This document shows, one piece after another, positions 2,635 through 32,117 of a stretch of DNA of 51,024 nt (position 1 is its first letter; each line of letters begins with the position of its first letter). The notes under the pieces were generated by a model that saw nothing but the letters and a program-made list of their open reading frames with translations, had not been told where the DNA came from and did no database searches. Position numbers and translations under genes: made by a program. The DNA is from a bacterium (GTDB lineage Bacteria; Sumerlaeota; Sumerlaeia; SLMS01; JAHLLQ01): assembly GCA_020444065.1 (NCBI GenBank), contig JAHLLQ010000013.1:1-51024 (forward strand), in the 5' to 3' direction.

Positions 2635-3120
2635 CTAGGACTGCGCCGACAGGAGCACATCCAGACGGATCTGCAATGCGACGTACCCGTAAAGGCCCTC
2701 TTCTGCGAAATCGTTCGGATCGATTTCATCGACAGGAACCACAATCTCCTTCACGGACTCCACAGTATCATCGTCGCAGAAATCGATGAACGCCTTGGTT
2801 CTATCATCGTTGTACCGAATGAACCCAGGCATCGGCCAGTCTTCACGATTCCAATCGGGAAGCCTCCCGATGATCGGCCAGACCTCCTTCTTCAGACCGA
2901 GATCACCGAATTGAGTTAACAAGATTGCCCCTTCCGGACCAGGCGGAATTCCGAGTGACTGCAACTCCTGAAGCGTCGAACAGCGCGGCCCAAAGAAGTA
3001 CCCGAACGCAGGTCCTTTCCCACTGATCCGAGCAATCACCCCGCGCGCAAATCCCCCGTTCCGCAGCGGCACGGCGCAGCAATTTCCTTCTAGATCACTC
3101 AACTGCCGGTTTGTCTTCAA
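2635..3120 (-). CDS. Imm26-like immunity protein for the RHS toxin
   Basis: I place the start at a TTG (3120-3118) that shares two bases with the TGA stop of the RHS gene. AGGA lies 7-8 bases upstream. This gives 161 residues; a GTG at 3153 would add 11 more, overlapping the toxin tail. The N-terminus EGNCCAVPLRNGGFARGVIA followed by a GYFFG motif matches the general pattern of the Imm26 family ('G.vfaiPL..G.ya.g.v....G..fG'), proteins encoded next to polymorphic toxins that neutralise them. The middle contains GLKKEVWPIIGRLPDWNRED and the C-terminus is acidic, as expected for a partner of a basic nuclease. There is no signal peptide, so it should act in the cytoplasm. The overlap with the toxin stop suggests translational coupling. 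The family match is by eye; that it pairs with this toxin is inferred from position. Confidence 0.75.
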   Translation of the reverse strand: MKTNRQLSDLEGNCCAVPLRNGGFARGVIARISGKGPAFGYFFGPRCSTLQELQSLGIPPGPEGAILLTQFGDLGLKKEVWPIIGRLPDWNREDWPMPGFIRYNDDRTKAFIDFCDDDTVESVKEIVVPVDEIDPNDFAEEGLYGYVALQIRLDVLLSAQS

Positions 3121-3440
3121 TCTAGTTTCCTGCCAGCCTCCAGGTAATCGCACCGATTGGGATTCCTGGGCGAAATCGGCTGGTTCTTGTTTAGTCCACC
3201 ATTCTCGAATCTGGCCTCGGGGTGTTCATCATGGATAATTTGCTCGCGTCCTCTTTGGGCTGCGTATTCGTCTGTCGTTCGATCCACCTCGAACTTGAAT
3301 TCCTCAGTCTCCGGTTTACGCGCATGATCGCCTTTTCGACTTTTGAGGTTGTTCGTTCGTCCGGTTCTGACGACCTCACCAGTTTCCGGATCTTTGAGGA
3401 AATAAGTGCCCCCTTTTGGCTCTTGGGGAGGTGTCGGTGC
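3117..3440 (-). other. GIY-YIG (URI-like) nuclease toxin tail of the RHS protein
   Basis: The last ~105 residues read GGTYFLKDPETGEVVRTGRT, then NNLKSRKGDHAR, RGREQIIHDEHPE and finally KNQPISPRNPNRCDYLEAGR. This is the order of the GIY-YIG fold: a first strand with the Tyr, a G-R-T turn, the L-x-x-R helix with the catalytic Arg, then a helix with the metal-binding Glu. The 'N..I.SPRNP....YLEAG' ending is the one commonly seen in GIY-YIG toxin tails of RHS and filamentous toxins (Tox-URI type). Nuclease activity is predicted from family knowledge, not shown. Confidence 0.82.
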
Positions 3441-6400
3441 CGAACACGGATTCACATTATGGCTCAGCACGCCGAGATCTGACACAAGGTAGCTGTGCTC
3501 AGTCTCAACCTCTATGTTGTAAACACGAGGTAATCCGTCAAGCGGAACCACGGATACGATCGAGACAGATCCCGTACTGGTTCGAAGTCGTCCGCCGACA
3601 CGCAGATCTTCCGCCGGGATCCAGTTATCTTCATCCTCTGAGTAGAGCCGATGAGTTGACGTAAGAACGAGGGGCTCATCTGCGCCCTGCAGTTCTATGC
3701 TCAGAATATGCGTACTCAGCCGTGTGACTGTCGCCAAGACCACACGGCCTGGCGAATCCTCGATTTCCGGACAGGGTTCGATCGAGACAACCCAGGCGGG
3801 TCCGAAGATATCCAGTTCTGGGAATTCGAGCGTGATTTCCTTGCCCACTTCGGGCGCGGTTTCCGCGAACCACTCAGGTGACCGAAGGAGTTCGACCTCG
3901 AGCGTATCCCATCCGCCGTCGGGGTTAGGCATGTAGAGCGTAACAACTTGCCAATCCCCGTTGACTTCCGTCTCGTAGTCTTCTCCGTCTCCAATCGTTA
4001 GGACCCGATCCCCGACCTCCAGCTCTTCAATCGCAACCGGTCCGTCTGCTTGTTGGACGAGGGTGCCGGCGACGAAGCAGCCGGCGGGAGGCAGGTCATT
4101 GCCAGCCTTGATTGTGTCGTCGAGAGCCTTACCTCCATCCGTAATGCTATCGGCAGCGTCGGCGACCTCATCGGCGCTTCGAACGATTCGATTGGCATCC
4201 GAAACTTCATCGACTGCTCTTGCTGTGTTCTTGGCCGTGCGGAAAATCCCGACTGCCTCGAACGGCGCGGCAATCGCCTTCAGAGCAAAGCCTGCTGCGC
4301 CCGCGATGTCTGAGGCGCGTCCGACCTCACCTGCGACCCCCGAAACGATTTCTGTTTTCGTCATCCGATCATGGTTGACTGAGATCTCTGCGGATTCCTC
4401 TCCCAGCGAGAGAGTATCCGCAGCGAAGTGAGCACCGCCATAAACTGCGGCCCCGACCGTGTAGATCGCGAGGTCGGATTCCAGGCTATTGACGAAGCCG
4501 TCCGCACTTGCCAGGATCCTAGCTCCGCACGCTGCTGCCCAACCGCGCAACCCCCACGGGTCCACGTAGCTCCACGGGTTGTTGCCTGTGTACGTGTAGC
4601 CGTTGCCGAGGTTGAGGGGGTCGCCCCAGATGCCGATGGGGTCGCGGGTGATGAAGCGGCCGGTTTCTGGGTCGTAGTAACGGTGCCGGTAGTAGTAGAG
4701 GCCGGACTCGGTGTCGTAGCGGCGGCCGGTGAAGAAGTACGGATTCCCGTAGCTGGCTGTCGTCGGGCTGTGGGAACTGTCAAGGACCGTGGGTTCGCCG
4801 AAGGCGTCGTACCCGTAACGCTCGACGACCGCGCCGGACGAATCGAGCAGCGTGACGACGTTGCCTTGATCGTCCTGGTGGTAGTAGTACCAACCCTGAT
4901 GTGCACCAGTAAGACGGTGCATGGCAAGCAAATCGTCGATGCCGTCGGAATAGACGAACTCAATCTGAGGCGTACCGGCCGACGATTGCTCCTGGATGCA
5001 TTCCCACCCGTCGTACACGTACCGCGTGGTGGTTTCGTCCGTCGTCTTGGCGATCCGCCGGCCGAGGGCATCGTATCGGTAAGTCGTGACGGGGCCCGCG
5101 CGGTCTTCGTAGGTGACCAGGCGATTCCGATAGTCAAACGTCAGCGTGTCGGATGTTACGAATTGCCCGCTCTGGAACGTGCCGCGGCGGGTCAGGTTTC
5201 CTGTCGCATCGTGCTCGCGCCGATCCGTGGTTTCATCGTAGGTTTGGGTCTGCTGATTGAAAACGGAATGAGTGATCTCCGTGTATTGGTTGACCACGTC
5301 ATCGGTCGGCGAGGAGCGGTCGTAGTCCTTGTCCCACTGCGTTCCACTCGCGACGCTCTCTCGATTGCCTGCCGGATCGTAGTCGATCGTGATCCCGTCC
5401 ACGCCCGTCAGTCGCGACAGCGAATCGTACGTGAAGCTCTTCGCAACGACCGAGTTCGAACTGGCGTCCAGTTCCTCCCAAAGACTCCGATTATCGAGCG
5501 CGTCCCATTCGAATTGATGCCTGGCGAAGGTGCCTTGCGAGGGGGAGCCTTCCAGAAGATGGATGGACGTGCTCCGACCCAGCGAATCGTACTCGAAGGC
5601 GGCACGGGCCATCGGCCATTCGCCTACTGTTACGTCAAAGGATCGCGATCCAAGGCGATAACCCGTCCCGATATAGCTGTTGATCGCTATCGAGTGCTGG
5701 TAGTCATCCAGGAATTTCGTCCCGCGCCCAAGAGCATCCATCATGCGAGTGATGTATAGGCTGCCGGGATAGCTGATCCCCTTCCGCCTTCCCATGCTGT
5801 CCGCATCAAAGGCCAGCGTATCGGAGAGGGACAGGATGCTGTCGATTTGTGTCTCTGAGAGAAGGTTGCTTGCCGAGTCGAATGCCCGCGTGACGACTGA
5901 ATCGTTGTCCTCGGCGCGAAGAAGACGTCCCAGGCCGTCGTAGTAGTAATTCTCGGAGGTCGTCTGGTTCGAGACACCCGTGCCAACGGATATCGTCCGC
6001 CCCGTAAGGCGCCCCAGATCATCGTACACATTGGTAATCGTCGATCCGTTCGGATCGGTAATGACCCACGGCTCGCTGAAGTCCGTGTAGGACGTCAGGT
6101 CGTACTCGCTGCCATCGGCGTGCTCGGTTGCGATGGGACGATTCAGAACATCGTAGACGTATTCCGTGGCGTTTCCATTGGGATCCGTCTGGGAGATAAG
6201 CCGAGAGTAGATGTCCCAATCAAGAGCGGTCGTATTTTCTCCGATTTTCGTGCCGTTGGCATCGTACATGTATCGGGCTGTCGACAGCTTGCGGCCGAGC
6301 AGATCATACTGGTGGCGTGTGACCTGCCCGAGGGGGTCGATTCCCATTACAATGTGATCGAACGAATCGTAGTAGAGTTCCCAGGTACGTTCGTTTGAGC

Positions 6401-9400
6401 CAGAGGGATCCTCGGTCACTCTGGTGAGGCGATCGAGGTCATCGTATCTGTACACCGTCGTCAGGGTTTCCGCCGTGCTGCTAGGGACGATGTTCACCAG
6501 GGTACTGGTCGTCACATTTGAGTTGGCGTCGTACAGATAGGCCTGCGTGTTCCCGATGGGGTCTTCCCATCCGGCATAGCGATGTGCCGAGTCGTAATGG
6601 TAGTCCCAGGTCTTGCCGGCATCATTGGTGGTCGAGATCAGCGCTCCGTTCGGGGAGTAGGCGAACTGGGTCGAGTTGAGGCTGTCGGAATAGGGGATCT
6701 CGCTGAAGAGAAGGTCGCCATTCGGCAACGTCCCGTCCTCGTACTTGCCTGTGGCCGGGTCAAAGACGAGCGAGGTGCCGCTCTTGTACGCGTTGTACTT
6801 GAACAGCTCTTCCTCGACCTTCGTCGTGCGACCCATCACGTCGTACTCGAAGTGCGTACGAGCGAGCGGGTGAATGCCAACATCGACCAGTGAGGTCAGT
6901 TGCCCAAGATATTCGACTTCCTCGACGCGGTATGAGTTCCAGGTTGAAGTCGTCGCGAGATCCTGCTCGTAGGTCAGACTTACGAGATTCCCCAGCGGAT
7001 CGGTGATCGAAGCGAGGCGATCGAGGTCGTCATACTCATAGGTCGTTGTGCGACTATTCGCCTCACCGGGGTTTTGGATGATGTACTCGAGGTTGCCATT
7101 CGCCGTGTACGTGTATTCCAGCAATGACTCGATGTTCGATCCCACACCCCGCCGAATTCGATAAGGCATGTCGCGCTGATCGTACTTGATAGTGACGTTG
7201 TTGTGCGCCTGGATCTCAGGGGATGGGACTCCATTGAGCACACCCGTCCTGTGGAAGGCATTCAGATTCCCATTCCGATCGTATCCAAAGACATCGACAA
7301 CCTGCTCGCCCGAACCCACCGTCAGTGTGGCCGTCGTAACTCGATCGTGTTCCCACTCGTATTCGATGGTCTGGATCTTCGGGTTCGAAGAGTTGTATTC
7401 GGCCTCGTAGGCGGGATGAGTAGATGGAAGATTCCAGACCTCGACCAGGTCTCCATTGTCATCGACTGTCAGGTACTCCTTTTCGATGCGTTTGATCTGC
7501 CCTGGCCGGCGATAGAAGTACTTCGTCACGCGTTGCGACTGGTCGGGACGAACAATGGTCTTCCTCAGAACATCCCCCCGAATGCTGTTCGTGTACTGGA
7601 CGAGATTGCCTTTGGGGTCCTCGACGTGGTTCACGAACCCATTGCTGTCGTACTCCAAGTGCCAGTTCAGATTCTGTCCCAGACCATCAAAGGAATCCGA
7701 TGGGGCATCGGCAAGATCATCGAGATCGTCGTCTGTGCTATCGATATAGACATCCGCAAGGACACGCTTGCCACAGGCCGTCGAATATTCAAAGAGATCG
7801 TACCGATAGTGACCATCTGCATCCGGCGGCCAAATATGGACTTCACGATCGCCCATTTCCAGCTTGAGATAGAAATGCTCGCTGCCGTCCGGATAGGAAG
7901 CATGTTTCAGGGTCCCATCCGCGTGATACTCGAAGTCAGTGACATTTCCCTGCTCATCGGCGATCTGAGTAACGTGATCACAGCAGTCCGAAAGCGTGTA
8001 TTCCTTGCGGATTGGCTCAGCCGAAGAACCAAATACGGGAAGATCGATCACTTCGATGATCTTATTTCCGGCCAGGTCGTAGCTTCGTACATACTGTGTT
8101 GCGTTTCCCTCCGGGTACGTGACCTTCTTCAACTCGCCTTCGCCCGTCCACTCGAACTCGGTCACATAGTCCGTCGTACACGAGGGGAGTTCCGCGTTCT
8201 CGTACGAGTCATCAGAGTCGCACGACTCCGTCTTCCGGACGCAGTTCCCCATCACATTGTATTCGTAGGTTTTCTTGAACCCTCGCCGATCTTTGAGTTC
8301 CGTGGTGATGTGTGTGTCATTGTAGTCGGACGGCGTTGCGTTCACGATCGGAAGACCTACCTCGACTTCCTCTCCCTGCCAGATTTGCTTCTGGATCCTC
8401 CCTGCTTCGCCGGGTTGATACGTGTTGTACAACAGCGTCGGGCTGACGAGTCCTCCATCGATGATTTCGCTGATGCTCGAGATGCCGCAGACCGCATTCC
8501 AACTGTGGTATCCATACCGAATGCCGATCGAGATCGGATCTAAATCCGGCCCGAGCTCGACTTCTCGTGTGACCGATTTTAATTGGCATTTTGAGGAGCT
8601 ATCGGCGAAGTAGTAGTCGTAGTTGATAACTTCCGACGTCAGCTTGTTTGTGACAGACTTGATCAGCCCCCCCCATGGCTCATTGGGATCCATGGGGATC
8701 TGACGGGGATAGTAGTCGACGGTAATTCCAGCGCCGTTCGCGAAGCTGGCAGCGGCGAATCTGTAGAGAGTTTCCCAGCTATCATCATGCGTCGTTGATG
8801 GCGAATAGGCCCAATCCAATTGCAGGTCGGATCCCTTGGGTGATTCAATGGTCCGAACGACGTAGGTTCTCTTGGTTAGAGTCAGATTCTGTTGAACAGG
8901 GTCACCCGGTCCTGTGAGAAAGTTCGTGGAGACTTCTTCGGACTCCTCTACATAACCCCACTTCCCACCGTTTGGGAATTCCAACGTGTACTTGCTGACT
9001 GAGGCGCCCCAAGGAGGAAAACCATCTGGGAAACTCAGTTCCGGCCAATCGGCGTCCGGAGACGGGTCCAGGTGGATATCTGTGTAAGGAATCCGGTATC
9101 CATAGTGTCCATCTGCACCCCCCGTCATGTAGCAATAGAGTTCGTTCCCTTTACCATCGGAAATTACGAAAACTGATGGATAGTTCAGCGCGATTGAGCC
9201 TCCGAGATTGAAAACGTACTCGTATTCGATCATGCGGAGATTATAGGAATGATCCCACTGCCAGCCCATGTTCGAGTCGGTCCTGATTCTTCTCTGGCTC
9301 CGGTGGAACCGCGACCAAACAACAGACAGGTCCTCGTCCCCTGGAACGATCGTATCGATTTCGGGGAGATAGAACTCCTGGTTATGCAACCAGACTGGAT

Positions 9401-11177
9401 CAATGTGCTCGTCTGAATCGCCCTCCGAGACGATACTGACACTGGCCTCACCAGGATACGCTGGTGGAGTTCCCGGGAGCATCTTCTCGCCGTAGGACTT
9501 GTTCGATCCCGCGAATTGAGTTTTTCCGTAAACACCCTCTGGATTCACTCCATCGAACGTGTAGTTCTCGAAATTGATCGTAAACGAGACGCTATACTGA
9601 CCTGTGGCGGGATGTCGCTGGTCGTTGATGTCAGTTCCCCCGCTTCCGTACAGGATCCCATCCCATGCCGCCATGATTGCGCCGCCACCGGCATGGCATG
9701 CGTCCACGTAGCTTGGCTGCGGATGACCCGCAAGTTCCATCTGGTAAATACGTTTATAACTGGAGCTCGAAAGGTCCGTAATGATGAGTTCTGCGGCGAA
9801 GTCGGTACCGACCCCGAGATCATGATTAAGAACGATCGCAGAAGGCGGAGAGTACGTCGCCCCCACAGGGATGGAGATGGTCTCTAGTTCATCTTCTGAC
9901 GTACCGAGTGGATACGGAGGAAGTATCCAATCGTCAAGTTCCACGATATGGACTGTACCTGTTGCCTCAGCCCAATGCGCGGCCCCCTGATAGGTGGCGC
10001 CGGAATTGACGGTGCCCAGGTCGAGGACTCCTTGATTATACTGCTGCACCTCTTCTGCATCGAGTCCGGAACTGAATTCGTACGTTCCGGGTTCCGTGAT
10101 TTCGTGATCGGTGGTGTACTCCTTTGCATAAAGGACTTCGGGGCTGGAGCTTTGTGAGTTGCACCTCACCTCATCGCCCGGATCAGAGTTGCAGCCCAGT
10201 ATCTTTCTTTCACCAATCGTGATAGGATAATTGAGATAGTGAATATAGCCGTCGGAAAAGGGAGGTGATTGTCCCAGTTCAGCAGAGAGGGGATAGCCTG
10301 GTACAACGACGCTGGCCAGATCGCCATTCTGCAGAACGTATTCTTCGTAGAAATCAGGCTCACTGAACCAGAACGTCCTCTGACCTTGAGCATATCCCTT
10401 CTGGTGTTTCATACTCACAGAAATCGTCACACTATTGTCGGTCGGGTCCCGAAAGAGGACTGCTTCGGCGTGCTCATCTGTAATGCTGCTGTTCTCGCCC
10501 GAAACCGTCCATCTCCACTCTAGCTTGGTTCCCAAATCACAGTCGGGATCCTTATATGCGCCAACAGAAACGGGATCCCCACGATAGCGAATGCAGTCTT
10601 CCAGTCCGTAGACATGTATCGTTGCGTGACAGAAATTGTCGTATTCAATAATGGACTTGGGATCTCCCTCATCCTCGAGTTGATCGGCCCTTGAGCTGTC
10701 CGCGACCTCGAAAGGCATGGTCTCCAACACGAGGCTCTTGCCTGACACCGTGCTGGCGACGATCTGCAACGTGACCAACGTGTTGGGGCTGATCTTGTCA
10801 GCCTCGTAGTCCCACCACACGATCTCGTTGAAGCATCCATCTTCTTGGAAGAATGGATTGGACGGCTTTATGGCGAGTGTGGCCAACTGATATGCCGGCT
10901 GGCCCTCGACATCGGTCTGGTAGTAAACTGAAACGTGGACGCCCTCGCAGGATGGCGAGCGCAGCTTTATGCCAAGAGACTCATAGCCATCCCATATTCC
11001 AAGGCTCTCTACCTCGCCATAGGCTCCTTCCTCAAAGAACCCCAACTGAATGGCTCTGCTCGGCATGGCTGGCAAGATGCTGAAGATAACCAAAGGAATG
11101 AGAAGCCAAAGGCCCAGTGAGAAGCTGTTGCGAATAAACAAATCGTCAGAGTTGGAGTTCCGAATGCGGCGAGGCAT
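3117..11177 (-). CDS. RHS-repeat polymorphic toxin with Hint domain and GIY-YIG tail
   Basis: This encodes 2686 residues. Residues ~18-42 are a signal peptide or anchor (LGLWLLIPLVIFSILPAM). Residues ~45-610 are unassigned extracellular, probably beta-rich segments. From ~615 the RHS/YD shell begins, with many repeats such as YEYDDLDRLASITDPLGN and YRYDDLDRLTRVTEDPSG. It ends in the RHS-associated core RYYDPETGRFITRDPIG...NPWSYVDPWGL at about 2165-2210. P-x4-D-P-W-G-L is the known self-cleavage motif. A helical Ala/Asp-rich pretoxin linker (2211-2365), a Hint domain (~2366-2574) and a GIY-YIG-like nuclease (~2587-2686) follow. In known RHS toxins the shell encloses the toxic tail and releases it by autoproteolysis. 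The target is probably nucleic acid of rival cells. The Imm26-like gene overlaps the stop. No strong Shine-Dalgarno was found next to the ATG (AGGA at ~-17), so the start is slightly uncertain. No delivery system (VgrG, T6SS) is seen here; a Sec-type signal suggests export by another route. Confidence 0.93.
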   Translation of the reverse strand: MPRRIRNSNSDDLFIRNSFSLGLWLLIPLVIFSILPAMPSRAIQLGFFEEGAYGEVESLGIWDGYESLGIKLRSPSCEGVHVSVYYQTDVEGQPAYQLATLAIKPSNPFFQEDGCFNEIVWWDYEADKISPNTLVTLQIVASTVSGKSLVLETMPFEVADSSRADQLEDEGDPKSIIEYDNFCHATIHVYGLEDCIRYRGDPVSVGAYKDPDCDLGTKLEWRWTVSGENSSITDEHAEAVLFRDPTDNSVTISVSMKHQKGYAQGQRTFWFSEPDFYEEYVLQNGDLASVVVPGYPLSAELGQSPPFSDGYIHYLNYPITIGERKILGCNSDPGDEVRCNSQSSSPEVLYAKEYTTDHEITEPGTYEFSSGLDAEEVQQYNQGVLDLGTVNSGATYQGAAHWAEATGTVHIVELDDWILPPYPLGTSEDELETISIPVGATYSPPSAIVLNHDLGVGTDFAAELIITDLSSSSYKRIYQMELAGHPQPSYVDACHAGGGAIMAAWDGILYGSGGTDINDQRHPATGQYSVSFTINFENYTFDGVNPEGVYGKTQFAGSNKSYGEKMLPGTPPAYPGEASVSIVSEGDSDEHIDPVWLHNQEFYLPEIDTIVPGDEDLSVVWSRFHRSQRRIRTDSNMGWQWDHSYNLRMIEYEYVFNLGGSIALNYPSVFVISDGKGNELYCYMTGGADGHYGYRIPYTDIHLDPSPDADWPELSFPDGFPPWGASVSKYTLEFPNGGKWGYVEESEEVSTNFLTGPGDPVQQNLTLTKRTYVVRTIESPKGSDLQLDWAYSPSTTHDDSWETLYRFAAASFANGAGITVDYYPRQIPMDPNEPWGGLIKSVTNKLTSEVINYDYYFADSSSKCQLKSVTREVELGPDLDPISIGIRYGYHSWNAVCGISSISEIIDGGLVSPTLLYNTYQPGEAGRIQKQIWQGEEVEVGLPIVNATPSDYNDTHITTELKDRRGFKKTYEYNVMGNCVRKTESCDSDDSYENAELPSCTTDYVTEFEWTGEGELKKVTYPEGNATQYVRSYDLAGNKIIEVIDLPVFGSSAEPIRKEYTLSDCCDHVTQIADEQGNVTDFEYHADGTLKHASYPDGSEHFYLKLEMGDREVHIWPPDADGHYRYDLFEYSTACGKRVLADVYIDSTDDDLDDLADAPSDSFDGLGQNLNWHLEYDSNGFVNHVEDPKGNLVQYTNSIRGDVLRKTIVRPDQSQRVTKYFYRRPGQIKRIEKEYLTVDDNGDLVEVWNLPSTHPAYEAEYNSSNPKIQTIEYEWEHDRVTTATLTVGSGEQVVDVFGYDRNGNLNAFHRTGVLNGVPSPEIQAHNNVTIKYDQRDMPYRIRRGVGSNIESLLEYTYTANGNLEYIIQNPGEANSRTTTYEYDDLDRLASITDPLGNLVSLTYEQDLATTSTWNSYRVEEVEYLGQLTSLVDVGIHPLARTHFEYDVMGRTTKVEEELFKYNAYKSGTSLVFDPATGKYEDGTLPNGDLLFSEIPYSDSLNSTQFAYSPNGALISTTNDAGKTWDYHYDSAHRYAGWEDPIGNTQAYLYDANSNVTTSTLVNIVPSSTAETLTTVYRYDDLDRLTRVTEDPSGSNERTWELYYDSFDHIVMGIDPLGQVTRHQYDLLGRKLSTARYMYDANGTKIGENTTALDWDIYSRLISQTDPNGNATEYVYDVLNRPIATEHADGSEYDLTSYTDFSEPWVITDPNGSTITNVYDDLGRLTGRTISVGTGVSNQTTSENYYYDGLGRLLRAEDNDSVVTRAFDSASNLLSETQIDSILSLSDTLAFDADSMGRRKGISYPGSLYITRMMDALGRGTKFLDDYQHSIAINSYIGTGYRLGSRSFDVTVGEWPMARAAFEYDSLGRSTSIHLLEGSPSQGTFARHQFEWDALDNRSLWEELDASSNSVVAKSFTYDSLSRLTGVDGITIDYDPAGNRESVASGTQWDKDYDRSSPTDDVVNQYTEITHSVFNQQTQTYDETTDRREHDATGNLTRRGTFQSGQFVTSDTLTFDYRNRLVTYEDRAGPVTTYRYDALGRRIAKTTDETTTRYVYDGWECIQEQSSAGTPQIEFVYSDGIDDLLAMHRLTGAHQGWYYYHQDDQGNVVTLLDSSGAVVERYGYDAFGEPTVLDSSHSPTTASYGNPYFFTGRRYDTESGLYYYRHRYYDPETGRFITRDPIGIWGDPLNLGNGYTYTGNNPWSYVDPWGLRGWAAACGARILASADGFVNSLESDLAIYTVGAAVYGGAHFAADTLSLGEESAEISVNHDRMTKTEIVSGVAGEVGRASDIAGAAGFALKAIAAPFEAVGIFRTAKNTARAVDEVSDANRIVRSADEVADAADSITDGGKALDDTIKAGNDLPPAGCFVAGTLVQQADGPVAIEELEVGDRVLTIGDGEDYETEVNGDWQVVTLYMPNPDGGWDTLEVELLRSPEWFAETAPEVGKEITLEFPELDIFGPAWVVSIEPCPEIEDSPGRVVLATVTRLSTHILSIELQGADEPLVLTSTHRLYSEDEDNWIPAEDLRVGGRLRTSTGSVSIVSVVPLDGLPRVYNIEVETEHSYLVSDLGVLSHNVNPCSAPTPPQEPKGGTYFLKDPETGEVVRTGRTNNLKSRKGDHARKPETEEFKFEVDRTTDEYAAQRGREQIIHDEHPEARFENGGLNKNQPISPRNPNRCDYLEAGRKLD
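3450..4081 (-). other. Hint (intein/Hedgehog-type) domain of the RHS toxin
   Basis: This is the segment of the RHS gene that begins CFVAGTLVQQADGPVAIEEL and closes with YNIEVETEHSYLVSDLGVL-SHN. The first Cys, the G-T-x-V block, the T-x-x-H block (LVLTSTHRLY) and the terminal His-Asn are the hallmark Hint features. In polymorphic toxins such domains sit just before the toxin and cleave the peptide bond to free it. All key residues (Cys1, the T-x-x-H histidine, the last H-N) are present, so it should be active. Residue boundaries are approximate. Confidence 0.88.
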
Positions 11178-11302: not shown

Positions 11303-13630
11303 CTACTGAGCCGTATCGATTCGAGAGTCGATCCAAGCCGGGAGTTCCGGGATGGCGATCGTCGTCAGATCGAGGTCGTCGATCGTGCGGCGGCGATAGA
11401 GTTGGCCATCGCGCAGAACGTAGTTGGACTTCAGCCGGTTGACCATGGCACCGGTTGGTACTTCCTGATTGACTATCCGTGTCTTCGTGACAGGAACGAT
11501 CGTCATCGTGGCATCGTCTATGATGAAGTCCGTGTAAGTTTCTTCGATTTCGGTGGTTTCATATTCCGGAATCGACTCATACGCCTCCGCGGGGATTACG
11601 TTACCGCTCTCGAGGGAAACGAGAATCCAAGGGGCCTTTGCGAGTTCCCGCTCCGCGGCCTCCAGAAAGGCCTGCACTTCCCAGTCTTCCTTCGAGATCA
11701 TCTTCTCTTCAGGAAGCTGGTACTCGTAGACAAGTTGTGCAGAGCTATTCTCCTCCTGCATTTTCTGCTCGACCCACTGCACGAGCTTGGCCATGTCCAC
11801 GACAGCAGCGTCGCCCGTCAGGCGATTGGCATGGTGGAAACTCCAGGGAAGATCGACGGTCGGATCATCGAAGGAAGAGACGAAACCGGAACGGGTGGAG
11901 CGGGAAGACGTACCACCGAAAGGGGTGGCGTGCGACGAAAGCTGTGTCGTGTTGCCCGCGGAGTCCATCACCCACATGGCCGTCACACTCGCGTTGTTCT
12001 CATCCTGATTGACAAAGAACTTCGCGCGGTTTGCCTGGGCTGTTGGTGTTGAATAGGAATCCGACCCAATGCTGATCGCACCGTTATAGACTTCGAACCT
12101 CTCGACCGGATTTACGACGCCGACGCCGAGTTCTCCCGGGACACTCACCATGTGAGATGTTCCGCCGAGTCGGATTTCATAGTTGGCGGTCGATGTGACA
12201 TTGGTCCCAAGCGCGATCGCATTAGAGTGAGCAGCATCGGCGTTATGACCGAGGGCGATCGAATCACCCGCTGTCGAGAGAGCATTGTTGCCGATCGAAA
12301 TGCTCCTGTCATGCTCAGCTCTGGCTCCAGATCCAATAGCGACAGAGGCATTTGAGTCGGTCTGACCGGCATCTGCCGTTCGACCGATTGCCACACAACT
12401 ACTCTTCGCCTTTGCGGAACTGCCGAGTGCGGTACCATACGAGCCGCTAGTGAGCGCTCCATACCCAACTGCAGTAGCTTGCGTCCCAGTGGCATTGGCC
12501 CCCTTTCCCAATGCTGTGCTCATCTCACCACCATTCGCGCCGTGCCCAACTGCCGTGCTGCTGTCCAAGGCGGCGGTTGCACCGTTTCCAAGTGCCGTTG
12601 CGAACGCGCCGGATGCACTGGCGCTGTTGCCAATCTTGAAAGATGAACTGCCAGATCCAGGAGAGAGAAGCGCGCCGGAAAATGTAACCGCACCAGTCGC
12701 GGTGTCTGCTGCGTCAGACCGGAGGAACTGCGTACTATCCAGGCTGTCCAGGTAGTCAGCGTTGAGGTTTGAACCTTGTCCCGCGTCGACATTGTTGAAG
12801 ACGACACCATCGCCCCAGGTCATCGAATCGAGAACTGTTCCGAGAGCTACGGTGACAGTTGCCCCAGCCGCTCCGGAGAACGCTGTCAGGCCTGAGTGTG
12901 TCCCGGCATTTGCTGCGGAGAAGACCACCTCGCGTGTATCGATCGTCTCATCGGCGGAAATGGCAGAGTTGCCGTTCGCGCTGCTCGTCAGTGCAAGACG
13001 GGAACCTCGGATCGATAGCCTTCCTCCAGTGGGTACGGATGACGAATTCACAATGCCACCTACACCTTGGAGATCGCAGTCCGAAAGCACCGTTGAACCG
13101 GCCGCGGCCCAAGTGACCGCATCTCCTCCAGCGCTCTCAACCACGCAGTTGTGAACCCTCAGATCGACATCAAGCCCACCTGTTGCGTTGATGCTATTAA
13201 TATCCACGGGGACACCGCCGGAAGTGCCGTCATGTTCAATGCGAAGCGCTTCGATGACATTGACATCGCCGACGGATCCAGCAGGCAAAGCAATCGTGAG
13301 GGTTGAGGTCGTGCCGGATGAGGAAAGCACAACGGCGCCAGCCTCGGCGCCGACAATGCTGAGGTTCCGGCGATCAATCGTCACGCCTTCCTCGTAAGTT
13401 CCAGGGTATACCAAGATCAGAGTCGGGGTCGTCAGTGCCGATGGCAAGTCATCGATTGCCGCCTGGATCGAGCCGTAGTGGTATGGCGCAAGGTACTGTG
13501 CAGAGTCCTTGGAAACACGGATCACTCCGGAATCGGGCGGCGAGTCCGCAGCAGCCACGCCGAGAAGGAAAGAGATGCAGAATGCAAGAAGACTCAAGCG
13601 GGCCGGACGAGTAAGTGCAAAGGCTGCCAT
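11303..13630 (-). CDS. Secreted beta-helix / YadA-head-like fibre protein
   Basis: This encodes 775 residues. The ATG follows GGGGAG at ~9 bases. A signal peptide (LSLLAFCISFLLGVAAADS) ends near residue 28. Residues ~40-280 look like a pectin-lyase-type right-handed helix: YGSIQAAIDDLPSA, then VYPGTYEEGVTI and LSIVGAEAG. At ~285-320 comes a tail-fibre-type motif (LNADYLDSLDSTQFLRSDAA, then DTATGAVTFSG). At ~325-480 there are about a dozen YadA-head-like turns of 14-16 residues (for example SGAFATALGNGATAALDSS and GTQATAVGYGALTSG), whose pattern is known from left-handed trimeric beta-rolls. Residues ~490-600 resemble a tail-fibre distal region (GELGVGVVNPVERFEVYNG). The last 150 residues have no S74 chaperone motif. 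It is probably a trimeric surface fibre; the trimer is inferred. There is no YadA membrane anchor, so attachment is unclear. It lies 125 bases before the RHS gene in the same direction. Confidence 0.85.
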   Translation of the reverse strand: MAAFALTRPARLSLLAFCISFLLGVAAADSPPDSGVIRVSKDSAQYLAPYHYGSIQAAIDDLPSALTTPTLILVYPGTYEEGVTIDRRNLSIVGAEAGAVVLSSSGTTSTLTIALPAGSVGDVNVIEALRIEHDGTSGGVPVDINSINATGGLDVDLRVHNCVVESAGGDAVTWAAAGSTVLSDCDLQGVGGIVNSSSVPTGGRLSIRGSRLALTSSANGNSAISADETIDTREVVFSAANAGTHSGLTAFSGAAGATVTVALGTVLDSMTWGDGVVFNNVDAGQGSNLNADYLDSLDSTQFLRSDAADTATGAVTFSGALLSPGSGSSSFKIGNSASASGAFATALGNGATAALDSSTAVGHGANGGEMSTALGKGANATGTQATAVGYGALTSGSYGTALGSSAKAKSSCVAIGRTADAGQTDSNASVAIGSGARAEHDRSISIGNNALSTAGDSIALGHNADAAHSNAIALGTNVTSTANYEIRLGGTSHMVSVPGELGVGVVNPVERFEVYNGAISIGSDSYSTPTAQANRAKFFVNQDENNASVTAMWVMDSAGNTTQLSSHATPFGGTSSRSTRSGFVSSFDDPTVDLPWSFHHANRLTGDAAVVDMAKLVQWVEQKMQEENSSAQLVYEYQLPEEKMISKEDWEVQAFLEAAERELAKAPWILVSLESGNVIPAEAYESIPEYETTEIEETYTDFIIDDATMTIVPVTKTRIVNQEVPTGAMVNRLKSNYVLRDGQLYRRRTIDDLDLTTIAIPELPAWIDSRIDTAQ

Positions 13631-14031
13631 AGAAGTACTCCCCTCAATGAGTGCTTTGTAGTTATTGATTACACATATGACTTAGCACCTCTTCGGACGG
13701 TGGCAAGTACAATTCTCGGTGGCGCCAAAATGGCATAACTCTAGTTCTATCAAGGCTCTCAGACCCCAGAGTGCATTGGTATGAGTCGGAGCAATCAACA
13801 GGGAAGACTTGGCAAAGGCCTTTATTATCAGTGCCATCCAGCAAACTTCCGATCTCTAACGTTTGCGTTTCTTGAGTTCGCCTCAGATTTGCGAATTAAG
13901 CGATTATAACTTGGCGCTAAGGAGGGCTCGGGCTCTTCTAGGAACCATTTGCATTCCCACATAGGTGCGTGCTTCGATCCTGCGTCGTCTGCCAAGAGAG
14001 GGCAGAATCACTTGGTTACGGAGAACACCGT
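13631..14031. other. Divergent intergenic region (fibre gene / gnd)
   Basis: This is 400 bases between the minus-strand fibre gene and the plus-strand gnd. It must carry promoters for both directions. It is locally AT-rich (for example TTGCGAATTAAGCGATTATA near 13892-13911), but I cannot place a -35/-10 pair with proper spacing. No gene or RNA is recognised. The gnd frame is open upstream to 13969, but that extension lacks a ribosome site and conserved sequence. Confidence 0.5.
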
Positions 14032-15489
14032 ATGGCTGCCACCGCGGATTTTGGGCTTATTGGACTTGGAGTCATGGGCGAGAACCTCGTCCTGAACGTT
14101 GAGGACAAGGGATTCTGCGCCGCCGTCTACAATCGCACGACAGAGAAGGTTGACCGCTTCATCAATGGTCGAGGGAAGGGCAAAAGCTTCATCGGCACCC
14201 ACACGATCGAGGAGTTCGTCGCCTCGATTAAGCGTCCACGCAAGATCATGATGCTGGTCAAGGCGGGACGCCCCGTCGATGCCGTGATCGAGCAGTTGCT
14301 GCCTTACGTCGAGGAAGGGGATATCGTTATCGATGGTGGCAACTCGTACTGGCCCGATTCCACGCGGCGCACGAAGGAACTGCGCGAGAAGGGAATTCTC
14401 TTCGTCGGCACAGGTGTCAGCGGCGGCGAAGAAGGCGCGCTCCACGGTCCTTCACTTATGCCCGGCGGCGACGAACGCGCCTGGAAGGAGATCAAGCCCA
14501 TCTTCCAGGCGATTGCGGCGAAGGTGAACGATAAAGAGGTCGCTTGCGACTGGGTTGGTGACGAAGGCGCTGGCCATTTCGTCAAGATGGTTCACAACGG
14601 GATCGAGTACGGCGATATTCAGATCATCTGCGAAGCCTACCAGTTGATGCGCGAACTCCTCGGCATGGATCCCGAGGAAATCGGCGAAGTCTTTGCCGAA
14701 TGGAACAAGGGCGAACTGGACAGCTATCTGATCGAGATCACCTCGCACATCCTTCAACGCAAAGATGATAAAACCGGCAAGCCGATGGTGGATCTGATTC
14801 TGGACGCGGCAGGCCAGAAGGGAACGGGTCGCTGGACTGTCATCGATGGCATGGACCTCGGCCAGCCGATTACTCTCATCGCCGAGGCCGTCTTCGCGCG
14901 AAATCTATCTGCCATGAAGGAAACGCGCGTCCGCGCAAGCAAACACCTCCCGGCGCCGACGATTTCTTCGCGGCCCGATCGCGCGGAGTTCATCAAGGCG
15001 CTGGCCGATGCACTTCTCGCCAGCAAGATCGTCTCGTATGCGCAAGGCTACCAGATGATCGAGGCCGCCGGCACAGAGTTCGGCTGGAAGTTGAACAAGG
15101 GCGGTATCGCGCTGATGTGGCGCGCGGGCTGCATCATTCGTTCCGCATTCCTTGGCGATATTCGGAACGCTTTCGCTGAGGATCCGCAGTTGGAGAATCT
15201 CATTCTCGCGCCGTTCTTCCGCGATCGGATTCTGAAGGCCGAAGCGGGTTGGCGCCGGGTTGTTTCGACAGCGGCTCTCAACGGCATTCCTACGCCATCG
15301 CTCTCCAGCGCTCTCGCATACTACGACGGCTTCCGGAGCGCTCGGCTGCCTGCCAATCTCCTCCAGGCCATGCGCGACTACTTCGGCGCCCACACCTACG
15401 AACGAATCGACCGTCCCCGTGGCGAATTCTTCCACACCGACTGGGTCGGCCTTGGCGGAAACACAACGTCATCGAGCTACAACGCGTAG
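14032..15489 (+). CDS. gnd: 6-phosphogluconate dehydrogenase, decarboxylating
   Basis: This encodes 485 residues and converts 6-phosphogluconate to ribulose 5-phosphate and CO2 in the oxidative pentose phosphate pathway (cytoplasm). The ATG at 14032 has GGAG 8 bases upstream and begins MAATADFGLIGLGVMGENL, with the GxGxxG nucleotide-binding loop at residues 9-14. Further family blocks are VIDGGNSYWPDSTRR, GTGVSGGEEGALHGPSLMPG, and HFVKMVHNGIEYGDIQ, which holds the catalytic Lys and substrate-binding Asn. GQKGTGRWTVIDGMDLGQP and a C-terminal FHTDWVGLGG complete the set. The length matches the long NADP-type enzyme (468-485 residues). No zwf or pgl is next to it. The following lut operon starts 163 bases later, so gnd is probably transcribed alone or with partial read-through. 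Confidence 0.97.
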   Translation: MAATADFGLIGLGVMGENLVLNVEDKGFCAAVYNRTTEKVDRFINGRGKGKSFIGTHTIEEFVASIKRPRKIMMLVKAGRPVDAVIEQLLPYVEEGDIVIDGGNSYWPDSTRRTKELREKGILFVGTGVSGGEEGALHGPSLMPGGDERAWKEIKPIFQAIAAKVNDKEVACDWVGDEGAGHFVKMVHNGIEYGDIQIICEAYQLMRELLGMDPEEIGEVFAEWNKGELDSYLIEITSHILQRKDDKTGKPMVDLILDAAGQKGTGRWTVIDGMDLGQPITLIAEAVFARNLSAMKETRVRASKHLPAPTISSRPDRAEFIKALADALLASKIVSYAQGYQMIEAAGTEFGWKLNKGGIALMWRAGCIIRSAFLGDIRNAFAEDPQLENLILAPFFRDRILKAEAGWRRVVSTAALNGIPTPSLSSALAYYDGFRSARLPANLLQAMRDYFGAHTYERIDRPRGEFFHTDWVGLGGNTTSSSYNA

Positions 15490-15652
15490 GGCATTGAAGT
15501 AAGGGCAGGTTGGGCAGCACAATTGGGAGTCCATTTAGCATCGAGGGCTTCTTCCTTGACCGTGCTCCCTGACGCGCGCGAAACACGCCATAGACGAACT
15601 GGCATTCACGCACATTCTCACCGAGTGGCTATTCCTCTTCAGGAGAGCCCAA

Positions 15653-16456
15653 TTGAATCCCAATTCACAGAACACAAGGGCGATTCCGCCGACCACTGCT
15701 CCCGTGCATCTGATGCTGACCTGCTTGTGCGATGCCTTCTACCCTGCCGTGGGCATCGCCTCGGTCAATTGCCTGGAAGCGATTGGATTCGGGGTGATCT
15801 TTGATGATCGCCAGACGTGCTGTGGGCAGCCGGCGTTCAACAGCGGAGATCGCGAGAGCGCACGCGCCGTCGCACGGCACTGGCTGCATGTGTTCCGGGA
15901 TGCGGAGGCGATTGTCACACCTTCGGGTTCTTGCGCAGCGATGATCCGTTCGGGGTTCCCATTGCTCTTCAAAGGCGAACCGGAAGCTGCGGAAGTCGCA
16001 CGTATGGCGGGCAGGACGTGGGAGATTGTCGAGTTTCTCAGCAACGCAATGGGTTCCACTCCCTGGGCGGGGCGCTACGAGAAGAAGATCGCGCTTCACC
16101 AATCCTGCCACCTAAGGGAACTCGGTTCACGAGACATTCCCCGCGCTTTTCTGCAGAAATTGGAAGGGATCGAACTGGTGCCGTTCCGGGCATCCGAACA
16201 GTGTTGCGGCTTCGGTGGGGTCTTCGCCGTCAATTTTCCATGGATCAGTCGCGAAATCGGTGATGACAAGCTGGCAGCCGTGCGGGATTCGGGAGCAGAG
16301 GAACTGGTCAGCACAGATATGGGATGTGTGATGCACCTGGCTGGTTTGCAGAAACGGCACGCAAAAGAAACCGGGACTCAGCCGCTTCCGATTCGCCATG
16401 TCGTTGAGGTGCTCGACGAGGCACGCACCTGCGATGGAAAGGGCGCGGGATCATGA
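15653..16456 (+). CDS. lutA: Lactate utilization protein A (CCG-type Fe-S oxidoreductase)
   Basis: This encodes 267 residues from a TTG start behind GGAG (7-base spacing). It is a subunit of the LutABC complex, which oxidises L-lactate to pyruvate in the cytoplasm. Two CCG-type cysteine-rich domains are visible: CLCDAFYPAVGIASVNCLEA...DRQTCCGQPAFNSG (~20-65) and HQSCHLRELG...EQCCGFGGVFAVNFP (~147-200). A last cysteine is in STDMGC. These domains usually bind an unusual Fe-S cluster. The N-terminal ~18 residues are an extra polar extension compared with typical LutA. The stop overlaps the lutB start as ATGA, so translation is coupled. Confidence 0.93.
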   Translation: MNPNSQNTRAIPPTTAPVHLMLTCLCDAFYPAVGIASVNCLEAIGFGVIFDDRQTCCGQPAFNSGDRESARAVARHWLHVFRDAEAIVTPSGSCAAMIRSGFPLLFKGEPEAAEVARMAGRTWEIVEFLSNAMGSTPWAGRYEKKIALHQSCHLRELGSRDIPRAFLQKLEGIELVPFRASEQCCGFGGVFAVNFPWISREIGDDKLAAVRDSGAEELVSTDMGCVMHLAGLQKRHAKETGTQPLPIRHVVEVLDEARTCDGKGAGS

Positions 16457-17865
16457 AGCCGCCTGTCCATATCGACATTGAGGCCATCGGGTGCGCCAAG
16501 CCTGCCGAAGTTCGCCAAAGCGTTCGCAGCGCCGCAGAGAACAAGATCACATCCCGAGAGAAGCGACTGTTCCAACTCAGGCGCAATGATTCGCACGCTC
16601 TGCGGGAGTTGGCCGCCTCCGTGCGCCGACACGCGATCGAAAACCTGGATCACTATCTGGAGAAGGCGGAGCGCAAGCTCACAGAGAACGGTGTGCAGGT
16701 TCACTGGGCGGAGGACGCGGAGGAAGCCCGGACGATTTTCCTGGAGATCTGCGAGCGCACTCGTCCGACGACAATCACAAAAGGCAAGAGCATGGTGACC
16801 GAGGAAATCGGTCTGAACCACTTCCTGGAGGATGCCGGATACTCGCCGCTCGAGACAGACCTCGGAGAATTCGTGATCCAGATTGCAGGCGACGTACCCA
16901 GCCACATCGTCACGCCAATCATCCACATCAACGGTCGCGAAGTCGCCAAGCTGTTCGAGAAGGAAGGCCTGGGCGAACCGACAGAGGATCCCGAGGAACT
17001 AACGATGCAGGCGCGGCGCTATCTGCGCACGCACTTCAGCAAAGTCGATCTTGGAATCACCGGAGCGAACTTCGTCGTCGCCGAAACGGGGCGCTTCATC
17101 ACCGTCGAGAATGAGGGCAACGTTCGCTTATCCTCGAATGCTCCCAGAGTCCACGTGGCCATAACGGGCATCGAGAAGGTCATTGCTTCCGAAGCGCACG
17201 CCGCTGTGTTGCTCAAGATGCTCGCCAGCTCCTCGACCGGCCAGGATCTGACCGTGTACACGCAATTCATCGCGGGACCTCGGCGCGCGGAAGATCTCGA
17301 CGGACCGGAAGAGGTTCATCTGATTCTGCTCGATAACGGCCGGACAAATCTTCTCGGGGGACAGTACCAGGATATGCTTCGCTGCATTCGATGTGGCGCA
17401 TGTCTCAATGTCTGTCCAGTCTACAGAACGGTCACAGGACATGGGTACGGCAGCGTCTATCCTGGGCCGATGGGTGCGATCCTGTCGCCCCTACTTGGCG
17501 GCGAGAAAGGTCGTGCGCAATACTCCTACCTGCCAAAGGCAAGCAGCCTGTGCGGGGCATGCGAGGAGGTTTGCCCTGTCGGAATTCCGATTCCCAGAAT
17601 GCTGCTGGCGTTGAGAGATGAGTTCTACGGTACCGATGTTCCCTCCCCCGGCGGAGCGCCTCCGTTTGGTCCGTGGGCTGCGCTCTCAAAACGCCCGCCT
17701 CTCTGGAAGGCGGCAATGGCCAGCGCCCGCACGTTCGGGTGGGGGCCCGCGAAGCTCGCCCACCTGACTGCCCTGAAGAACTGGCTTGGCGAGCGCGAAC
17801 TTCCGGAGTGGCCGAAGAAGAGTTTCCGCCAGCTTTGGAAAGAGCGAAAAGGAGGAAGCCGATGA
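16453..17865 (+). CDS. lutB: Lactate utilization protein B (LUD + 4Fe-4S ferredoxin domain)
   Basis: This encodes 470 residues. The N-terminal LUD domain (~70-300) has the typical TITKGKSMVTEEIGLNHFL and GITGANFVVAETGRFITVEN blocks. Two 4Fe-4S motifs follow: CIRCGACLNVCPVY near residue 312 and LCGACEEVCPVGIP near 364. In the family this subunit passes electrons from lactate oxidation. The C-terminal ~100 residues match the usual LutB tail in length. The start overlaps the lutA stop (ATGA), and the stop overlaps the lutC start (ATGA), so three genes form one coupled operon. No lactate permease or regulator gene is visible next to it. Confidence 0.95.
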   Translation: MKPPVHIDIEAIGCAKPAEVRQSVRSAAENKITSREKRLFQLRRNDSHALRELAASVRRHAIENLDHYLEKAERKLTENGVQVHWAEDAEEARTIFLEICERTRPTTITKGKSMVTEEIGLNHFLEDAGYSPLETDLGEFVIQIAGDVPSHIVTPIIHINGREVAKLFEKEGLGEPTEDPEELTMQARRYLRTHFSKVDLGITGANFVVAETGRFITVENEGNVRLSSNAPRVHVAITGIEKVIASEAHAAVLLKMLASSSTGQDLTVYTQFIAGPRRAEDLDGPEEVHLILLDNGRTNLLGGQYQDMLRCIRCGACLNVCPVYRTVTGHGYGSVYPGPMGAILSPLLGGEKGRAQYSYLPKASSLCGACEEVCPVGIPIPRMLLALRDEFYGTDVPSPGGAPPFGPWAALSKRPPLWKAAMASARTFGWGPAKLAHLTALKNWLGERELPEWPKKSFRQLWKERKGGSR

Positions 17866-18533
17866 GCACCTCCCGCGATCGGATACTGGGGCGAATTAGG
17901 GACGCGCTGGCTTCACAAAAAGAGCATCATGCGGAAGTGCCGGAGGTGAATGATGCTGTGCTCCGGCAACTTCCCAAGGACCTCTCTCCCGCTGAACGTC
18001 GAGCCGAGTTTGAAGGACGCATCCAGGAACTGGGAGACTCCTACGTCTGCGTTGATGGCTGGTCGGCCGCGCGCGATTGGCTGCTGGACTTCCTTCGCAA
18101 GTCATCCGCCACGCCGGTTCTTGCCTGTGCAGACAATAAGGCCATTGAGATGTTGGAGTGGAAGACTCCCATCGAGGATGCCATCACGTTGCTGACGGCT
18201 GCGGATACAGCCGAGAGATCCTTCGCATGCACTCATGGAATCACAATGGCCGAGGCGGGAGTCGCTGAGACCGGAACGATCGTTGTGGCGAGCGGCGCGG
18301 GCAAACTGCGTCTGGCCAGCCTCGCTCCTGAGGTCCATATCGTTCTGCTGCCTGAATCCCGCTTGGTGAGCGACATCGCCGACGTCATTGCCAATCATCC
18401 CGGCCCCGAACACGCTGTCACGACCTGGATCACGGGAAGCAGTCGAACAGCCGACATCGATGGGATACTGATCCACGGGGCGCATGGACCTCGGGAGTTG
18501 ATCGTCATTCTGGTTCGGGAGGAAGCAGTGTGA
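17862..18533 (+). CDS. lutC: Lactate utilization protein C (LUD domain)
   Basis: This encodes 223 residues. The ATG at 17862 overlaps the lutB stop and has GGAGG 6 bases upstream. The open frame runs further upstream into lutB but is not needed. The N-terminus STSRDRILGRIRDAL is the normal LutC beginning. Conserved LUD blocks are GITMAEAGVAETGTIVVASG (~125-145) and a C-terminal WITGSSRTADIDGILIHGAH, close to the family's 'GPSrTaDIe..lv.GvHGP'. It is the third component of the L-lactate oxidation complex. It is slightly shorter than Bacillus LutC (~240). Confidence 0.95.
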   Translation: MSTSRDRILGRIRDALASQKEHHAEVPEVNDAVLRQLPKDLSPAERRAEFEGRIQELGDSYVCVDGWSAARDWLLDFLRKSSATPVLACADNKAIEMLEWKTPIEDAITLLTAADTAERSFACTHGITMAEAGVAETGTIVVASGAGKLRLASLAPEVHIVLLPESRLVSDIADVIANHPGPEHAVTTWITGSSRTADIDGILIHGAHGPRELIVILVREEAV

Positions 18534-30400: not shown

Positions 30401-32117
30401 CCGGAGTGTGTGGATTGGTCGTTGTGCGGAACCACTCTGAAGGGACGCCCGTCGTCACATTGTTCCAGAGCTCCGGGTATGCTTCGAAATCCTCCGACCA
30501 GACGCAGTCGTACGGATCGGCCTCGGGCCGTATCCAAAGCAACCACTCCTCATCGCCCGGGATGTTGTCCCAGTTCAGCCACTTGCCGCCGTAGGCATAA
30601 GTCTCCCAGTTCATGTTTACGTGAATCTTGTGCGCGCCATCGGCATCGCTGTATCCCTTGATCGTCACCCAGTGCCCCGTCCAAGGCGAATCCTCCTCGA
30701 TGTAGAAGCAATAGGCCGAGGGACGCCCAAGATCGACCAGCTTCACAATGCTGCTCCAGCGGACGGGCTGAACATCGTGCGCTTTGAAGAAGACAGAGTT
30801 CCCGTACTTGTTGTCTGAGCAGACTTTCTCGATCCCACCATCCACATCGTCCCACTCGATTCCCAACCATTCCGGCCAGGTTCCGAGAGTCGGCGAGTAA
30901 TCCACCGCTTGCATGATGTGATAAACAAGTTCCTCCTCATGCCCTTGCATAGCCGGCTTCGGCTCGCCGTCATTGTAGTAATCCAAGCTGGTGCGCATGG
31001 CCTCGCCGCAATCCACCAGGTTACCGTACCCATGCATATCCCAATACCCCAAGACCTGCGCCATCGCGGCCGGTCCACAGGAATTCTGTCCGTAGTGGCT
31101 TTGGAAGTAATACGGAACGCCGGAAATCTCGGCGCTTCCTCGCTCGCTGCGTTCAATGGTGCTGTACTTCGCAGGACTGCCCGTCAGTTCGAAGGACTCC
31201 CAGATCGTTTCCGACGGAACGGAAGTTTTCTCTCCCGACATGGGACGCATCGCGGGCTGGATACTCGAACGAAGCGAAGTGCGATCCAGCAATGTCCCAC
31301 TGAACGGCTCGACAAGACGCCCAGCAATACCGCGCGCGGCGCTCTCCTTGCCGCCGACCTCGTACAGGTACGTCAGTGGGCCAAGAAAGTACGTACGCTG
31401 GATGGCGTGTTCGTCGATATTCTTCAGTCCCGCCGCCTCTCGAACAAGACGCTCCTGTCGCAGGTGCGGAGCCGTTCCCTTCTCCATGGAAATGAGCGGG
31501 TACAAGTCTCTGCGCGCCGAGACTACAACGGTGCCAACGCAGTCGGAGAACGTCGTGGCCTGCCCGGCGCGGGCCAGCTCTGTTTCGCGCTCCAGGCGAA
31601 CATTTCTCTCCGCCTGCAGTTGCTGCACGGCGTCTTGGCGCGAGCGCTCGGCGTTTTCGAGTACGTCGCGGGGGATCTTCGTCGATACATGCCGATCCGG
31701 AATCGCAATGGCTTCGGCCATGTCTTCCCTTTCCTCGGCCTCGCTATCTATCGCCACCTCGGGTGCTGCAGGTTCGAGCGCCCTTTGATCCAATGCAGAT
31801 AACTCGAGATCGGAAAGCCGCGACTCCGCTTTGGCCATCCTGAGAATCAGTTCGGCTTCCGATTGCGGAGCTCCCGGCGCGACGGCGAACTGCACCGCGT
31901 AAGCCTGAACCGATTCGTCCAGGCCATAGTATGGCGTCACCGCAATCTGACGCGCGTCGGGCCATTGTTGGGTGGCGAAATACTGTGCGGTCTTTTCCGC
32001 TAGTTCCTGCGAAACGGCCTTGCTGTCCCCGGTTTGTGCGAACGCCGCGGACATCACCAGTTGAAGTCCACAGAGCATAACCAATGCGTACCGCCAACGC
32101 ACCAATGACGAATGCAT
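24402..32117 (-). CDS. Giant secreted C39-like protease with FN3, linker repeats and dockerin
   Basis: This encodes 2571 residues. I chose the ATG at 32117 because GGGAGG lies 8 bases upstream and a signal peptide ([19 protein letters not shown]) follows at once; an upstream ATG at 32174 lacks both. Residues ~330-560 are a C39-like papain-fold domain: [20 protein letters not shown] with the nucleophile Cys (~346) and GHWVTIKGY with the His (~480). After a jelly-roll-like part come seven FN3-like repeats (~714-1369; for example YYRVYRS, SGW, YYYRVQAA, DxGWR). Four ~170-residue modules with an I-x-W-W-G signature, ending M-x-MAF, follow (~1375-2300), separated by P-T-P-S-P linkers. Then come two InlB-B-like repeats ([14 protein letters not shown]), a TSP3-type loop and a full type I dockerin ([16 protein letters not shown]...[17 protein letters not shown]). 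It is probably secreted or surface-bound and degrades or binds protein. No cohesin partner is visible here. Confidence 0.9.
25160..27410 (-). repeat. Short-period coding repeats encoding Pro/Thr/Ser linkers
   Basis: Within the 2571-residue gene, four tracts at about 25160-25215, 25885-25940, 26585-26745 and 27360-27410 are built of 6-base units such as GGCGTC/GGTGTC and GGCGAT on the plus strand. They encode (P-T/S-P)n linkers between modules. The longest encodes ~50 linker residues. Such tracts can change length by slippage or recombination without breaking the frame. Confidence 0.8.

What the first reader, a model, noticed from the sequence alone, without database searches (positions are those of the whole stretch)
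2635..11177. Complete RHS-Hint-GIY-YIG toxin with an overlapping Imm26-like immunity gene
Seen directly: RHS core with PxxxxDPxGL, a Hint domain with Cys1/TxxH/HN, a GIY-YIG-like tail, and a small gene whose TTG start shares bases with the toxin stop. Known: each of these is a hallmark of polymorphic toxin systems, and RHS shells cage toxins. Unusual: two independent self-cleavage devices (RHS core and Hint) are stacked in one protein, which also has a long (~570-residue) non-RHS N-terminus and a Sec-like signal rather than a PAAR or T6SS trafficking domain. The delivery route is therefore open.
Basis: partly seen in the sequence, partly recalled or inferred. Interest (0 to 1): 0.8.

Follow-up and report, generated by a model that had tools for sequence, protein, structure and literature searches.

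The report
Secreted RHS nuclease toxin with Imm26
This is a large, probably exported bacterial weapon protein that carries a small DNA- or RNA-cutting domain at its end, followed at once by the gene for its antidote; the same toxin-antidote pair occurs in many bacterial phyla, so it is a well-preserved example of a known kind.

Summary
Window 3117-11177 (-) is one intact 2,686-residue protein: Sec-like signal, about 550 residues without a Pfam match, RHS shell with the self-cleavage motif P2201WSYVDPWGL2210, a Hint domain (C2367, TSTH, SHN2574) and a 112-residue tail. The tail belongs to the GIY-YIG (URI) nuclease superfamily: weak single-sequence scores, but three same-fold Pfam models recur among relatives, and the top nine solved structures matching its AlphaFold2 model are all UvrC GIY-YIG domains. 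The next gene (2635-3120, TTG start in a TTGA overlap) matches Imm26 above Pfam's cut-off. In all 14 evaluable relatives of the tail, from at least five phyla, the next gene is an Imm26 homologue. Zhang et al. 2012 already lists Tox-URI1 with Imm26, HINT, RHS and Sec/T2SS. 'Two stacked self-cleavage devices' is not unusual: 9 of 10 tested Planctomycetota Hint relatives carry an RHS core upstream, and one has RHS-Hint-tail of this family. The genome has no T6SS sheath gene; delivery into a target remains unknown. One small oddity: nearly all close tails have Arg where GIY-YIG nucleases have the YIG tyrosine. New member of a known kind.

The parts
11049..11177 (-). Sec-like signal sequence, toxin residues 1-43 (hydrophobic segment 19-37, AxA-like SRA end)
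   Evidence: single strong hydrophobic segment in the whole protein; no signal-peptide predictor was available
9393..11048 (-). N-terminal region, residues 44-595, no known domain
   Evidence: no Pfam match for residues 1-594 up to E 10; no homologue in 39 other genomes of the phylum
4548..9392 (-). RHS/YD shell, residues 596-2210, with DUF6531 at 597-651 and RHS core 2123-2210
4548..4577 (-). PxxxxDPxGL self-cleavage motif P2201-L2210, predicted catalytic Asp2206, predicted cut after Leu2210
   Evidence: catalytic role by comparison with P. laumondii Rhs1 D1338 (PMC8636562)
4080..4547 (-). linker between RHS core and Hint, residues 2211-2366
3456..4079 (-). Hint domain, residues 2367-2574 (Cys2367, TSTH 2506-2509, SHN 2572-2574), predicted cut after Asn2574
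   Evidence: PT-HINT E 1.5e-12, Hint_2 E 3.6e-8, intein_Cterm
3120..3455 (-). GIY-YIG/URI-type nuclease toxin tail, residues 2575-2686
   Evidence: relatives
2635..3120 (-). Imm26 immunity gene, 161 aa, TTG start overlapping the toxin stop (TTGA)
   Evidence: PF15428 E 3.8e-7; linkage conserved

Best explanation
A polymorphic toxin of the Sec-exported RHS-Hint class with a GIY-YIG (URI-fold) nuclease warhead and its cognate Imm26 antidote. Inferred course: the protein is exported through Sec, its RHS shell encloses the C-terminal region, the RHS aspartyl site cuts after Leu2210 and the Hint domain cuts after Asn2574, releasing a 112-residue nuclease that acts on nucleic acid in a competitor. 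Imm26, made by translational coupling from the toxin's 3' end, stays in the cytoplasm and neutralises the nuclease in the producer and its kin. Shown here: domain anatomy, intact motifs, predicted nuclease fold and conserved toxin-immunity linkage. Inferred: export, both cleavages, nuclease activity, neutralisation and the target. Passage across the outer membrane and into the target is unknown.
For: Domains and motifs. Tail family: T5orf172, GIY-YIG or MUG113 (all GIY-YIG-fold models) hit up to half of the members, best E 3.1e-4; the only PDB profile hit is UvrC's GIY-YIG domain (E 0.67); AF2 model pLDDT 87, order b-b-a-b-a, Foldseek top nine all UvrC GIY-YIG, best probability 0.99, E 0.043. 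Partner: Imm26 over the cut-off; next gene is Imm26-like in 14 of 14 evaluable tail relatives, 10 of 10 tested pass Pfam's cut-off. Literature: Tox-URI1 with Imm26, HINT, RHS, T2SS (PMC3482391). Contig belongs to the genome's lineage (6PGD 70-75% identical in same-order genomes).
Against: Single-sequence GIY-YIG scores are below curated cut-offs. Foldseek E-values are above 0.001 and TM about 0.5. The YIG-position tyrosine is Arg here. No delivery device was identified and the N-terminal 550 residues have no relatives in the phylum. Tail and Imm26 identities do not correlate significantly over 11 pairs (r 0.20, p 0.15).
Confidence: 0.85

Rival explanations
1. The RHS protein is mainly a surface or adhesive/developmental protein and the tail is a recently acquired, possibly inactive cassette.
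For: The contig carries other giant surface-type proteins; the YIG tyrosine is replaced by Arg; a broken relative of the tail and an Imm26 gene away from it occur in a same-family genome.
Against: Both cleavage motifs, the reading frame, the remaining conserved tail residues and the immunity gene are all intact; the Arg is shared by almost all close relatives, each with an antidote.
Confidence: 0.08
2. T6SS or other contractile-injection cargo that has lost its PAAR domain.
For: Most studied RHS toxins are T6SS effectors (PMC8636562).
Against: No TssC/VipB homologue in a genome 97% complete; signal-like N-terminus; HINT was never found with T6SS in the 2012 survey.
Confidence: 0.04
3. The tail is a nuclease of another chemistry on a GIY-YIG-like scaffold (for instance an RNase using Arg in place of the YIG tyrosine).
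For: Arg or Lys at the YIG position in all 14 close tails, Tyr in the more distant Vibrio, Hoeflea and Inordinaticella tails.
Against: The other active-site positions (Y, R, H, RxxE, N) are kept; no activity data.
Confidence: 0.15

Closest known systems
Tox-URI1 polymorphic toxins with Imm26 (Zhang et al. 2012, PMC3482391)
   Same: URI/GIY-YIG fold, Y, R, RxxE and N positions, Imm26 partner, association with HINT, RHS and the Sec/T2SS route
   Different: YxG is RxG in this tail and its close relatives; the host lineage could not be named here
Planctomycetota RHS-Hint-tail protein, locus L075
   Same: RHS core, the same Hint subtype (37% identity over 2-209) and a tail of the same family
   Different: tail of the Vibrio-like subgroup with YVG; the downstream ORF did not reach Pfam Imm26
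Nonomuraea harbinensis RHS-Hint-tail with Imm26, locus L018
   Same: RHS repeats, PT-HINT directly before a tail 48-49% identical, then Imm26
   Different: Actinomycetota; has SpvB; no PxxxxDPxGL found
T6SS Rhs effectors such as P. laumondii Rhs1/Tre23 (PMC8636562)
   Same: RHS shell with DPxGL self-cleavage and polymorphic C-terminus
   Different: PAAR/EagR-dependent, no Hint, no signal peptide
Bacterial teneurin-like proteins (PMC13018210)
   Same: Sec-exported YD-shell toxin with no evident delivery machine
   Different: teneurin superfold, 96% with a TIP domain; Hint was not seen in the passages read

Membership tests
RHS polymorphic toxins | YD repeats and RHS-associated core ending in PxxxxDPxGL | tested here: met
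RHS polymorphic toxins | variable C-terminal toxin with adjacent immunity gene | tested here: met
   the same tail rides on different N-terminal parts
RHS polymorphic toxins | autoproteolysis at the DPxGL site | not testable with these tools
   motif intact only
PT-HINT (pretoxin Hint) | Cys1, TxxH block and C-terminal HN directly before the toxin | tested here: met
Tox-URI1 / GIY-YIG nuclease toxins | GIY-YIG (URI) fold | tested here: met
   AF2 model and Foldseek: UvrC domains first; family-wide Pfam hits; no hit over the cut-off for this sequence
Tox-URI1 / GIY-YIG nuclease toxins | motif Y, YxG, R, [RK]xxE, N | tested here: inconclusive
   Y2592, R2614, R2642xxE2645 and N2672 kept, but YxG is R2604-T-G; the sister subgroup has YxG
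Tox-URI1 / GIY-YIG nuclease toxins | nuclease activity | not testable with these tools
   needs a bench assay
Imm26 (PF15428) | profile match above gathering score | tested here: met
   30.8 vs 23.3 bits
Imm26 (PF15428) | adjacent to a Tox-URI1-type toxin | tested here: met
T6SS Rhs effector | PAAR/VgrG domain and T6SS genes | tested here: not met
   no PAAR in the protein; no VipB/TssC in the genome
TcdB/TcaC-type (Tc toxin B/C) | SpvB/TcdB domains | tested here: not met
Two-partner (CdiA, T5SS) toxins | TPS secretion domain and filamentous hemagglutinin repeats | tested here: not met

The most novel reading that the evidence does not exclude
The tail and its close relatives form a GIY-YIG subfamily in which the YIG tyrosine has been replaced by arginine (lysine in one), implying an altered active site or substrate, released by a two-step RHS-then-Hint cleavage from a Sec-exported shell that needs no injection machine.
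Probability: 0.15. Interest if true: 0.5.

Novelty: new member of a known kind. Interest (0 to 1): 0.25.

Why it matters
It is a complete, intact example of a toxin-antidote cassette that moves between phyla and scaffolds. It could serve to test how Sec-exported RHS-Hint toxins leave the cell and in what order the two self-cleavages happen. It adds no new class.

Tried and rejected
Single-sequence scan of genome contigs for the tail gave nothing; the alignment scan worked. No tail relatives in phage records or viral contigs. Hit L006 in a same-class genome (E 0.008) has stops and lies among unrelated ORFs: rejected. Coevolution test by distance correlation was not significant. Foldseek of the Imm26 model gave no convincing match. 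The first RHS-core regex on Planctomycetota loci was too strict; profile search replaced it. Promoter and terminator scans were near shuffle expectation. Considered and rejected: PAAR-less T6SS effector, Tc-type toxin, CdiA-type toxin.

Full report
Observation. The 2,686-residue ORF at 3117-11177 (-) is intact. Pfam and NCBIfam give RHS repeats, DUF6531 (597-651), RHS-associated core (2123-2210), PT-HINT and an intein C-terminal region, all above curated cut-offs. The motif PxxxxDPxGL is P2201-L2210, Hint runs from Cys2367 to Asn2574, and the tail is 2575-2686. Residue +1 after the HN is Val, so C-terminal cleavage rather than splicing is expected (inference from intein chemistry). The next gene, 2635-3120, starts with TTG inside a TTGA overlap with the toxin stop, has an AGGA 7 nt upstream, and matches Imm26.

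The tail. Alone it scores weakly against T5orf172 and GIY-YIG. An alignment scan of 84,980 genomes gave 15 loci with 34-60% identical tails in Planctomycetota, Myxococcota, Acidobacteriota (Holophagae), Actinomycetota and Alpha-, Beta- and Gammaproteobacteria (phyla inferred from record titles); further relatives came from plasmid records of Methylosinus and Vibrio. Seven of 14 aligned members match T5orf172, six GIY-YIG (best E 4.6e-4) and four MUG113 (best E 3.1e-4). A profile of the family finds only the UvrC GIY-YIG domain in the PDB, weakly (E 0.67). The AlphaFold2 model (pLDDT 87) has strand-strand-helix-strand-helix order, and its nine best PDB matches are all UvrC GIY-YIG domains (best probability 0.99, E 0.043). 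Conserved positions are Y2592, G2606, R2607, R2614, H2618, R2642-G-x-E2645-Q and N2672. The second tyrosine of the GIY-YIG motif is Arg in 13 of the 14 close tails and Lys in one (L017); Vibrio, Hoeflea and Inordinaticella tails keep Tyr.

The partner. In all 14 loci where the DNA continues past an intact tail, the next gene is Imm26-like: 11 of 11 close loci start within -14 to +6 nt of the toxin stop with 34-53% identity to the window's protein, and the ten proteins tested against Pfam, including the three of the Vibrio-like group, all exceed the Imm26 cut-off. Tail and partner identities do not correlate significantly in 11 pairs (r 0.20, p 0.15), so coevolution is not demonstrated. The Imm26 model is confident (pLDDT 90) and mostly beta, whereas the 2012 table calls Imm26 mostly alpha.

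How unusual is the architecture? The same Hint type was found in 24 of 199 Planctomycetota genomes; of ten such proteins examined, nine have an RHS core above cut-off upstream of the Hint, and one (L075) continues into a tail of this family. Nonomuraea L018 is RHS repeats-PT-HINT-tail followed by Imm26. Zhang et al. 2012 state that HINT occurs with all stalk types including RHS, that HINT goes with T2SS but never T6SS, and list Tox-URI1 with Imm26, HINT, RHS and T2SS (PMC3482391).

Setting. The contig's 6-phosphogluconate dehydrogenase is 70-75% identical to same-order genomes, so the contig belongs to the lineage. RHS cores occur in 25 of 40 genomes of the phylum, but this Hint, this N-terminal region and an intact tail occur only here; a same-family genome has a broken tail fragment and an Imm26 gene on another contig. 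That fits horizontal gain and loss of the cassette. No T6SS sheath homologue and seven secretins were found.

Mechanism. Sec export, shell assembly, cut after Leu2210 by Asp2206 as in Rhs1 D1338 (PMC8636562), Hint cut after Asn2574, release of a nuclease, and protection by Imm26 are inferred from anatomy and known families; none was measured. How the toxin enters a target is unknown, as for other Sec-exported YD-shell toxins (PMC13018210).

Verdict. Confirmed observation, largely correct identification, ordinary novelty: a new member of a known kind.

Noticed in passing
L028 2370-8555 (own genome, contig C1 1256369-1262554): A second Sec-signal RHS protein (2061 aa) with RDPIG...RDPWGL core and DUF6531 but no Hint; its end holds an HEHSHVPQ stretch and it is followed at once by a small lipoprotein-like gene.
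   Followed up: partly
11303-13630: Directly upstream on the same strand lies a 775-aa secreted-looking protein with YadA-head repeats but no YadA anchor match; it might be a surface partner of the toxin.
   Followed up: partly
24402-32174, 33009-43454, 44125-50688: Three further giant surface-type proteins (fn3, peptidase C39-like, dockerin and DUF7901; Big_12; beta-helix and DUF7619) on the same strand of the contig.
   Followed up: partly
L005 1534-1752 and L064 1480-1794: A same-family genome (G019) has a decayed fragment of this tail on one contig and an Imm26 gene on another, without its toxin upstream.
   Followed up: partly
2635-3120: The Imm26 model is mostly beta-stranded, while the 2012 table describes Imm26 as mostly alpha.
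   Followed up: no
L094 and L095 (Planctomycetota): The same Hint type is followed there by other GIY-YIG-type tails (Tox-URI2-like, sub-threshold, and GIY-YIG at its cut-off).
   Followed up: partly
13969-18533: Housekeeping stretch: 6-phosphogluconate dehydrogenase, then a lactate-utilisation-like CCG/LUD/4Fe-4S pair.
   Followed up: partly
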